Source: Candidatus Freyrarchaeum guaymasense (GTDB lineage Archaea; Asgardarchaeota; Jordarchaeia; Jordarchaeales; Freyrarchaeaceae). Taken from it: a DNA stretch of 64,000 bases. Positions within the stretch are counted from its first letter, which is position 1. Every line of letters begins with the position of its first letter. Of this stretch, positions 34,876-36,167 are shown piece by piece. A program made the position numbers and the translations under genes. Where the stretch lies: the NCBI GenBank assembly GCA_030587405.1, contig JAUQZD010000076.1, positions 1 through 64,000 of the forward strand. The letters run 5' to 3'. The notes below the pieces were generated by a model, which saw only the letters and a program-made list of their open reading frames with translations, was not told the DNA's origin and did not search any database.

Positions 34876-36167
34876 TTCACAATTCCCCACCCGATGAGTC
34901 TCCATCTCCCCGAAACCATCCGGCTCACGGCAACCCTTTGCCCCTCCTCGGCGCAGACCGGCCGGCGCAGGTTGATCTCGACGACCCCGCCCCTAACCGA
35001 GGACACCACGCCTACAGTAACCGATGAGCCAACGTTCAGCATTAACGGCTCATTAACCTTTACATCTTCCACCTTAGAAAGCTCCACGCTGCCGACAACA
35101 CGCTCCATTAAATGCAGCTCTAAACTTAAACCATCCCATACTGGGGGAAGGGTACCCGGCTTCCCGACCACGCTCCCTATAAGTCCGTCAGCCTTTGTCA
35201 AGGAGGGGTCTAGCTTCGTTCCAACGCCAATCAACCCTCCGGGGACAGCTTCCTCGAGCTCCACGCCTCCACCAGCATGCAAGCTCACAACGTCAGTATA
35301 GATGGGCTCGTACCCTCCGCCAAGGCTAACACCAGGGCGAATCTCGATCTCGTCACCGACCCTAACCCTCCCCTGAACGATAGCTCCGCCAATAACGCCC
35401 CCAACCAAGTCCTCAGGCCTCGTACCAGGCTTATTAACGTCGAAAGACCTAGCCACGTACATCCTTAAGGGCTTACTAAGGTCTCTAGTGGGGGTGGGGA
35501 TCACCTCCTCGATGCTTTGAACCAAAACGTCAAGGTTCACACCGAAGACGGCTGACACGGGGATGACCGGGGCGCCCTCGGCGAATGTCCCGCTAATAAA
35601 CTCCCTGATCTGCCTGTAATGTTCGATTGCCGCCTCCCTAGAGACAAGCTCGATCTTGTTCTGCACGACGACGATGTTCCTAACCCCGGTGATTTCCAGC
35701 GCGGCGAAGTGCTCCCTCGTCTGAGGCTGAGGGCAAGGCTCGTTCGCCGCGATAACCAAGACGGCGCCATCCATCAGGGCGGCGCCACTAATCATGGTAG
35801 CCATGAGACGCTCGTGCCCTGGGCTGTCCACGAAGCTAACCTTCCTCAGGAAGACGGCGTCCTCGCCGCAATGCGGGCACTTGTACCCTCCAGCCATCGC
35901 CAACGTGAAGTAGCACTGAGGGGGAGGGCAGGAGGGACACTTCAAAACAACAGCGTCGGCGTAACCCAACTTGATGGTGATGCCGCGCCGCTTCTCCTCA
36001 CTATGACGGTCAGCCCAGACCCCTGTAAGCGCGTGCACAAGGGTGGTTTTCGGCGCCCCCCATCAGCATGGATGGGCATTGCCGTGGTCGACGTGTCCTG
36101 CGGTGCCTATGTTTACGACGCTTTGCGACTTTGCAGCATCCTCAAATGCGCCAGCATTCCCCGTCAA
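34872..36167 (-). CDS. eif2g: Translation initiation factor aIF2 gamma, interrupted by a 30-nt intron
   Basis: Read as complement(join(34872..36048, 36079..36167)), 421 residues. The TTG at 36167 follows GGAGGT (36179-36174). Exon 1 runs VVNIGTAGHVDHG, then stops at 36063. Exon 2 begins TTLVHALTGVWADRHSEE. Removal of 36049-36078 restores GHVDHGKTTLVHALTG with P-loop Lys30. Then come switch 1 (RRGITIKLGYADA), the zinc knuckle (CPSC, CPHC), VDSPGHERLMATM, QNKIELV and domains II-III. The factor binds initiator tRNA with GTP together with the alpha subunit. The intron sits at the same codon position as in aEF1A. Confidence 0.95.
36049..36078 (-). other. BHB intron in the aIF2 gamma gene (30 nt)
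   Basis: Minus-strand fold: central helix CGGC/GCCG (36084-36081 with 36054-36051); bulge 1 AAT (36080-36078); bulge 2 AAA (36050-36048); inner stem from a CCCATC/GATGGG hairpin with a short bulge. Cutting after base two of each bulge joins AA|A, the P-loop lysine. Length 30 keeps the frame but includes a TGA. Confidence 0.9.

What the first reader, a model, noticed from the sequence alone, without database searches (positions are those of the whole stretch)
36049..36078. aIF2 gamma carries an intron at the same P-loop nucleotide as aEF1A
aIF2 gamma and aEF1A are paralogous GTPases. Both introns split the lysine codon of GHVDHGK after its second base, with the same central helix (CGGC/GCCG) and the same bulge 1 (AAT), but different lengths (30 and 43 nt) and different inner stems. 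Shared position with unrelated interiors suggests repeated insertion at a conserved target, or transfer by recombination between paralogues, rather than one old intron. This bears directly on how archaeal mRNA introns arise.
Basis: partly seen in the sequence, partly recalled or inferred. Interest (0 to 1): 0.95.

Follow-up and report, generated by a model that had tools for sequence, protein, structure and literature searches.

The report
Recurrent introns at GTPase P-loop lysine
In an uncultured Asgard archaeon the gene for a translation start factor is interrupted, inside the codon of its key GTP-binding lysine, by 30 bases predicted to be spliced out of the RNA; a paralogous gene is interrupted at the same base, and relatives suggest that such inserts have likely landed on this codon again and again.

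Summary
Confirmed and extended. aIF2 gamma (minus strand) carries a 30-nt insert with an in-frame TGA at 36049-36078, splitting the P-loop lysine codon AA|A. aEF1A carries a 43-nt insert (38802-38844) at the homologous nucleotide (AA|G). Both fit a canonical bulge-helix-bulge (BHB), and removing them restores full proteins. The window is close to Jordarchaeia (Asgard). Three sister genomes carry the aIF2 gamma insert at the same base with 29, 31 and 29 nt, so stop-codon read-through cannot explain it. Of 213 Asgard aIF2 gamma genes found, 21 are interrupted in this codon; 18 of these lie outside that class and sit one nucleotide upstream (A|AR). In some of those genomes and their neighbours aEF1A, aEF2, an aEF2-like paralogue and aIF5B are hit there too. 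At a fixed register 116 of 120 central-helix positions pair in 30 such introns. Sister genomes encode a two-subunit splicing endonuclease. Splicing is predicted, not observed. Closest known: the crenarchaeal cbf5 intron, whose site is also occupied here.

The parts
36079..36167 (-). aIF2 gamma exon 1 (TTG start, GGAGG 7 nt upstream, both chosen by eye) up to ...GHVDHG and AA of the lysine codon
36049..36078 (-). aIF2 gamma P-loop BHB intron (predicted), 30 nt, in-frame TGA
36081..36084 (-). 5' side of BHB central helix (exon, CGGC), followed by bulge 1 AA^T (36080-36078)
36051..36054 (-). 3' side of BHB central helix (intron, GCCG), followed by bulge 2 AA^A (36050-36048)
34872..36048 (-). aIF2 gamma exon 2
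   Evidence: GTP_EFTU, GTP_EFTU_D2, eIF2_C
38845..38903 (-). aEF1A exon 1 (ATG 38903-38901)
38802..38844 (-). aEF1A P-loop BHB intron (predicted), 43 nt
37562..38801 (-). aEF1A exon 2
21895..21921 (+). cbf5 BHB intron (predicted), 27 nt, in the Asp codon of AGTLDPKVTG
23017..23045 (+). eL42 (L44e) BHB intron (predicted), 29 nt, in the lysine codon of SQPKP

Best explanation
The 30-nt insert is a predicted bulge-helix-bulge (BHB) intron of the aIF2 gamma mRNA that splits the codon of the P-loop lysine, and such introns have likely entered this codon independently several times, in aIF2 gamma, aEF1A and other translational GTPases of Asgard archaea. Shown by sequence: the insert, its position, the restored reading frames, the BHB geometry with compensatory changes, and the distribution over genomes. 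Inferred: a two-subunit splicing endonuclease (alpha with the histidine of the active site, beta without it) would cut each 3-nt bulge after its second base, and RtcB would join the exons, as for tRNA; unspliced aIF2 gamma mRNA would give only a short peptide that ends within the P-loop. Inferred too: in the window lineage the aIF2 gamma intron came first (stem of the inner clade) and the aEF1A intron later. Each group keeps one register (AA|R in Jordarchaeia aIF2 gamma and aEF1A, A|AR in the other group), which suggests that exon sequence plus endonuclease preference fix where a hairpin can be tolerated. Retention in the least dispensable codons would follow if imprecise loss is lethal. How the introns enter DNA is unknown; reverse splicing followed by recombination is one possibility.
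For: Insert, codon, frames. Same base in sisters with 29, 31 and 29 nt, hence frame-shifting. Compensatory change in the central helix: CGGC/GCCG (window) against UGGC/GCCA (G013, G014) in aIF2 gamma, and ACGG/CUGU against AUGG/CCAU in aEF2 of G102/G103. Fixed-register pairing 116 of 120 cells (104 Watson-Crick) over 30 introns, slid controls 30 to 65, 1 of 10,000 permutations as good. Distribution: aIF2 gamma found in 213 of 227 Asgard genomes, of which 21 are interrupted in the lysine codon, 2 undetermined (contig edge or fragment), 190 uninterrupted; 87 of 89 genomes sampled from the class of a Pyrodictiaceae record have aIF2 gamma, none of them interrupted at the P-loop, two being cut by contig ends. 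Other GTPases at the same codon: aEF1A in 5 of the 70 genomes with aEF1A among 80 searched; aEF2 in G102 and G103, aEF2-like and aIF5B in G103; aIF5B, with a relaxed motif, in 4 Jordarchaeia. Two EndA proteins in 6 of 8 Jordarchaeia, one type without the histidine. RtcB in 3 of 4 inner-clade genomes. Tree: window sister to G001, G012, G013, G014, support 100.
Against: No transcript has been seen, so splicing is unproven. The four Jordarchaeia aIF5B inserts fit the canonical register poorly (2 Watson-Crick plus 1 GU of 4). The window aIF2 gamma hairpin is not more stable than shuffles (z -1.13). A strict BHB scan does not separate signal from mock (26 against 15 on 1.1 Mb; in the window 14 against 15) and missed the aIF2 gamma and eL42 introns. 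The aEF1A intron could also be one stem gain plus one loss in the sister clade. Paralogue introns of different genomes in the second group can look alike, which would fit transfer between paralogues. EndA and RtcB were tested in sister genomes only; G001 lacks RtcB and one EndA type in its assembly, and no genome is held for the window.
Confidence: 0.82

Rival explanations
1. The introns spread between paralogues: an intron in one GTPase was copied into the homologous codon of another, by gene conversion or by reverse splicing of the excised RNA into a look-alike mRNA.
For: Same nucleotide within each group. In the second group some paralogue introns of different genomes are alike (z up to 4.9; 4.4 with a hairpin-preserving shuffle).
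Against: 0 of 12 same-genome paralogue pairs are alike above z 3; window pair z -1.1. Flanking synonymous bases of the two window genes differ (GGA/GGG, GTC/GTG, GAC/GAT), so no conversion tract is visible. Interiors diverge fast, so old copying cannot be tested this way.
Confidence: 0.2
2. One old intron, present before the paralogues or at the root of Asgard archaea, and lost almost everywhere.
For: It occurs in two sets of Asgard genomes at the same codon.
Against: 190 of 213 Asgard aIF2 gamma genes lack it; the two sets differ by one nucleotide and in BHB register; 79 of the 80 best loci are intact.
Confidence: 0.04
3. The stop codon is read through: UGA decoded as selenocysteine, with the insert translated as 10 extra residues.
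For: Jordarchaeia are reported to use selenocysteine (PMC9723677, abstract and passages); the window insert is 30 nt with UGA.
Against: Orthologous inserts of 29 and 31 nt shift the frame; the insert breaks the P-loop; the aEF1A insert is 43 nt.
Confidence: 0.02
4. Ribosomes hop over the hairpin (translational bypassing) without RNA splicing.
For: Short hairpin insert between codons; splicing not seen.
Against: The pairing links exon and intron in BHB geometry with compensatory changes, which hopping is not known to need (recalled).
Confidence: 0.04
5. Assembly error or decayed gene.
For: The named Asgard records are metagenome assemblies.
Against: Same site in several genomes, one on a 1.11-Mb contig; both genes otherwise intact.
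Confidence: 0.02

Closest known systems
Crenarchaeal cbf5 pre-mRNA intron (Yokobori et al. 2009, PMC2738675; read: abstract and the Results and discussion section)
   Same: Short BHB intron (16-44 bp there) that disrupts the codon of a catalytic residue, with highly variable interior, linked to hetero-oligomeric EndA. The cbf5 site is occupied in the window and in all 8 Jordarchaeia genomes searched, at the nucleotide seen in five Thermoproteota genomes.
   Different: One gene, with one ancestral insertion and losses; here several paralogous GTPases are hit at one homologous codon, in Asgard archaea.
Archaeal tRNA BHB introns (PMC11291895; read: passages on introns)
   Same: Same motif and presumably same endonuclease and ligase; 92-95% of tRNA genes have introns in the three genomes of that paper, which are of Atabeyarchaeia and Freyarchaeia (called Jordarchaeia by others, as it says).
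   Different: Host is mRNA; position set by a protein motif.
Haloferax HVO_1309 5' UTR BHB element (PMC7714728; read: two passages)
   Same: EndA processing of an mRNA.
   Different: In a 5' UTR, not in a coding codon. [quoted passage not shown]
Inteins and homing introns at conserved catalytic motifs (recalled)
   Same: Sit in the most conserved, least dispensable codons.
   Different: Far larger, with protein splicing or their own endonuclease; the four inserts of the window are 27-43 nt.

Membership tests
Archaeal BHB pre-mRNA intron (cbf5 type) | 3-nt bulge, 4-bp helix, 3-nt bulge across the exon-intron borders | tested here: met
   Window aIF2 gamma and aEF1A 4 of 4 Watson-Crick; 116 of 120 cells in 30 introns. 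The related aIF5B inserts fit only loosely
Archaeal BHB pre-mRNA intron (cbf5 type) | Excision after the second bulge base restores the protein | tested here: met
   for relatives
Archaeal BHB pre-mRNA intron (cbf5 type) | Orthologous intron in relatives with the helix kept by compensatory changes | tested here: met
Archaeal BHB pre-mRNA intron (cbf5 type) | Host has hetero-oligomeric splicing endonuclease | tested here: inconclusive
   Two types in 6 of 8 Jordarchaeia genomes, one found in G001 and in G013; one type lacks the histidine. The window's own genome could not be searched
Archaeal BHB pre-mRNA intron (cbf5 type) | RtcB ligase | tested here: inconclusive
   3 of 4 inner-clade sisters, none found in G001; window genome not held
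Archaeal BHB pre-mRNA intron (cbf5 type) | Spliced transcript | not testable with these tools
   no RNA data held
Group I or group II self-splicing intron | Conserved catalytic core of some 200 nt or more (recalled) | tested here: not met
   30 and 43 nt; no Rfam match at gathering score in 34000-40000
Selenocysteine recoding | Reading frame open through the UGA in orthologues | tested here: not met
   orthologous inserts of 29 and 31 nt shift the frame

The most novel reading that the evidence does not exclude
The P-loop lysine codon of translational GTPases is a landing site for mobile mini-introns: Asgard archaea run an active intron-gain process, driven by a broad-specificity alpha-beta EndA and RtcB through reverse splicing into mRNA, that keeps seeding the same catalytic codon in aIF2 gamma, aEF1A, aEF2 and aIF5B, so that making the core translation machinery depends on tRNA-type splicing.
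Probability: 0.3. Interest if true: 0.95.

Novelty: new variant of a known kind. Interest (0 to 1): 0.87.

Why it matters
What I found in print on archaeal mRNA introns in coding sequence rests on one gene, cbf5. Here are dozens of predicted introns at a few homologous codons, in paralogues and in two sets of Asgard genomes, some absent from sister species and so perhaps young. Gain, loss, register and target preference can be studied on a tree. It also means that gene callers are likely to miss or truncate translation factors of these archaea, which serve as phylogenetic markers in the debate on eukaryote origins.

Tried and rejected
A strict BHB-plus-open-frame scan was run on the window (14 real, 15 mock candidates) and on 1.11 Mb of G014 (26 real, 15 mock). 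It found the aEF1A and cbf5 introns but missed aIF2 gamma and eL42, so it was dropped as a census. The aIF5B core was looked for on G014 contig 1 and in the window: only its own copy. ARAGORN found 9 tRNA genes on that contig; tRNA intron sequences were not compared with the mRNA introns. A synteny comparison of window ORFs with G014 contig 1 flagged mostly adjacent genes. My first reading that the aIF2 gamma intron is confined to Jordarchaeia, from the rows listed, was wrong; the 63 genomes not listed there held 18 more. The first tree used a wrong ORF for G014 cbf5 and was redone. Searches of the paper library (listings) showed no paper on introns in Asgard translation factors; the library lacks most subscription journals and preprints.

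Full report
What is in the sequence. On the minus strand, 34872-36167 encodes aIF2 gamma (GTP_EFTU, GTP_EFTU_D2 and eIF2_C). Its P-loop reads GGA CAC GTC GAC CAC GGC AA, then 30 nt with an in-frame TGA, then A ACC ACC CTT. aEF1A (37562-38903) reads GTG GAT CAC GGC AA, 43 nt, G TCG ACT CTT. Removing 36049-36078 and 38802-38844 yields complete proteins with GHVDHGKTTL and GHVDHGKSTL.

Who it is. The closest genome record is Candidatus Jordarchaeum sp. LHC_1308 (81% identity over aIF2 gamma exon 2). Eight genomes of its class are held. A tree of aEF1A, aIF2 gamma and cbf5 exon 2 puts the window sister to G001 (the genome of L001, LHC_1308), G012, G013 and G014 with support 100; G002, G003, G006, G011 form, with G005, the outer clade.

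Sister genomes. G001, G013 and G014 have an insert at the same base of aIF2 gamma, of 29, 31 and 29 nt; no aIF2 gamma was found in G012. G013 and G014 have a second insert in the histidine codon of GHV (GGA C|AC GTN), leaving a 16-nt exon between the two. The outer four are intact. The aEF1A P-loop is intact in G001, G013, G014 and cut off by a contig end in G012. G001 has instead a 35-nt insert at the G3 motif (DAPGH|KDF) that fits a BHB with an outer helix. aEF2 has a G3 insert in G012, G013, G014 but not G001; aIF5B has a P-loop insert in all four.

BHB. In one search I fitted 35 inserts at eight kinds of site. All but the four aIF5B inserts and one eL42 insert (G001) give four paired central positions with 3-nt bulges, cut after the second base of each. 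The choice among equivalent borders was made by best fit. aIF5B gives 2 Watson-Crick plus 1 GU of 4 in its best register, a relaxed form at most. The exon side is fixed by the protein, and the intron side follows its wobble changes: CGGC/GCCG in the window, CGGU/GCCG in G001, UGGC/GCCA in G013 and G014.

Asgard genomes outside the class. Over the phylum, 213 of 227 genomes have aIF2 gamma at E 1e-60. The 63 not listed there were searched again. Twenty-one are interrupted in the lysine codon: G001, G013, G014 and 18 others (read). G227 (contig edge) and G106 (fragment) are undetermined. The other 190 have an uninterrupted start, G142 and G017 also by direct reading. The 18 have 29- or 30-nt inserts one nucleotide upstream, GGN A|AR, with AUGG pairing to CCAU, CUAU or ACAU (one search placed G133 wrongly, one search mends it). 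By handle order, beside the Helarchaeota and Sigynarchaeota records, I take them for Lokiarchaeia; no names are shown. The lysine codon is also hit in aEF1A of G112, G119, G131, G134, G137 (70 of 80 genomes of this range have aEF1A), and, among 20 genomes searched with GTP_EFTU, in aEF2 of G102 and G103 and in the aEF2-like paralogue and aIF5B of G103. G112 has both the aIF2 gamma and the aEF1A intron, repeating the pair of the finding. Other inserts here lie at GH|IDHG (aEF1A G135), NLV|IIGH (aEF1A G124), G3 (aEF1A G121) and before EEQERG (aEF2-like, G117, G109, G112, G135, with EEQARG in G135). aEF2 and aIF5B were not surveyed over the whole phylum, nor aEF1A outside these 80 and a few genomes.

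Test of the helix. At one fixed register per group, 30 lysine-codon introns have 116 of 120 central cells paired, 104 Watson-Crick; sliding by 1-4 nt gives 30-65; one of 10,000 permutations is as good. Two introns (aIF2 gamma of G013 and G014) were missed by the script, and the four Jordarchaeia aIF5B inserts were not put in. The introns are related, so the permutation figure is not a strict probability.

Shared origin or not. Interior similarity: orthologous pairs have mean z 3.1 outside Jordarchaeia and 5.2 within, the latter carried by aIF5B; within Jordarchaeia only 1 of 6 aIF2 gamma pairs exceeds z 3. Paralogues in one genome never do (0 of 12; window pair -1.1). So unlike interiors alone cannot show separate origin; distribution and register do. 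Among pairs from different families 28 exceed z 2.5, the best 4.9, and the 20 printed are all of the second set of genomes, so transfer between paralogues stays possible there.

Machinery. Six of eight Jordarchaeia have two tRNA_int_endo proteins, G001 and G013 one. One type has the GxDH histidine and the other does not, while a tyrosine and a lysine are kept in both (that Tyr, His and Lys form the active site is recalled). RtcB: 3 of 4 inner-clade genomes, and G112, G103. PMC2738675 links hetero-oligomeric endonuclease to relaxed substrates. Whatever the endonuclease, P-loop introns are not general: of 89 genomes sampled from the class of G228, a Pyrodictiaceae record, 87 have aIF2 gamma and none shows an interrupted P-loop (G241 and G238 are cut at contig ends).

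Other introns in the window. cbf5 has a 27-nt insert in the Asp codon of GTLDP, and eL42 a 29-nt insert in the lysine codon of SQPKP. Both occur in all eight Jordarchaeia genomes. The cbf5 site is the one seen in five Thermoproteota genomes. So these lineages carried mRNA introns in catalytic or conserved codons before the GTPase introns of the inner clade appeared (inferred from the distribution).

Mechanism. I propose excision by alpha-beta EndA and joining by RtcB (inferred). Unspliced aIF2 gamma mRNA would end at the TGA, the sixth codon after GGC. Why these codons: either the target sequence is preferred (YGGY-AA or AYGG-WA gives the exon half of the BHB), or introns survive only where imprecise loss kills; the data do not separate these.

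Literature. PMC7714728 (passages) states in 2020 that only one additional BHB intron, in cbf5, had been reported. PMC11291895 (passages) reports 92-95% of tRNA genes with introns in three Asgard genomes. PMC9723677 (abstract and passages) reports selenocysteine recoding in Jordarchaeia, the basis of the read-through rival. PMC12397907 and PMC12918454 (passages) showed nothing on introns in mRNA beyond references.

Noticed in passing
window 21895-21921 (+): cbf5 intron in the Asp codon of GTLDP, at the same nucleotide as in five Thermoproteota genomes; present in all 8 Jordarchaeia genomes searched.
   Followed up: partly
window 23017-23045 (+): eL42 (L44e) intron in a conserved lysine codon, in all 8 Jordarchaeia genomes (7, G014).
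   Followed up: partly
L148, L149 (G013, G014): aIF2 gamma with two introns separated by a 16-nt exon.
   Followed up: partly
L150, L151, L152, L153: aIF5B P-loop insert whose 22-nt core is identical in G001, G012, G013 and one base different in G014 although nearby exon synonymous sites differ; its BHB is relaxed. Unexplained constraint or recent spread.
   Followed up: partly
L286, L287, L288, L289: aEF2-like paralogue with an insert of about 30 nt containing a stop just before EEQ(E/A)RGITI.
   Followed up: no
L005, L085 (G005): A genome recorded as Sigynarchaeota whose aIF2 gamma and aEF1A group with outer Jordarchaeia: possible binning mix-up.
   Followed up: no
G014 contig C1: ARAGORN finds only 9 tRNA genes in 1.11 Mb, 7 of them with introns: more tRNA genes may be hidden by introns.
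   Followed up: no
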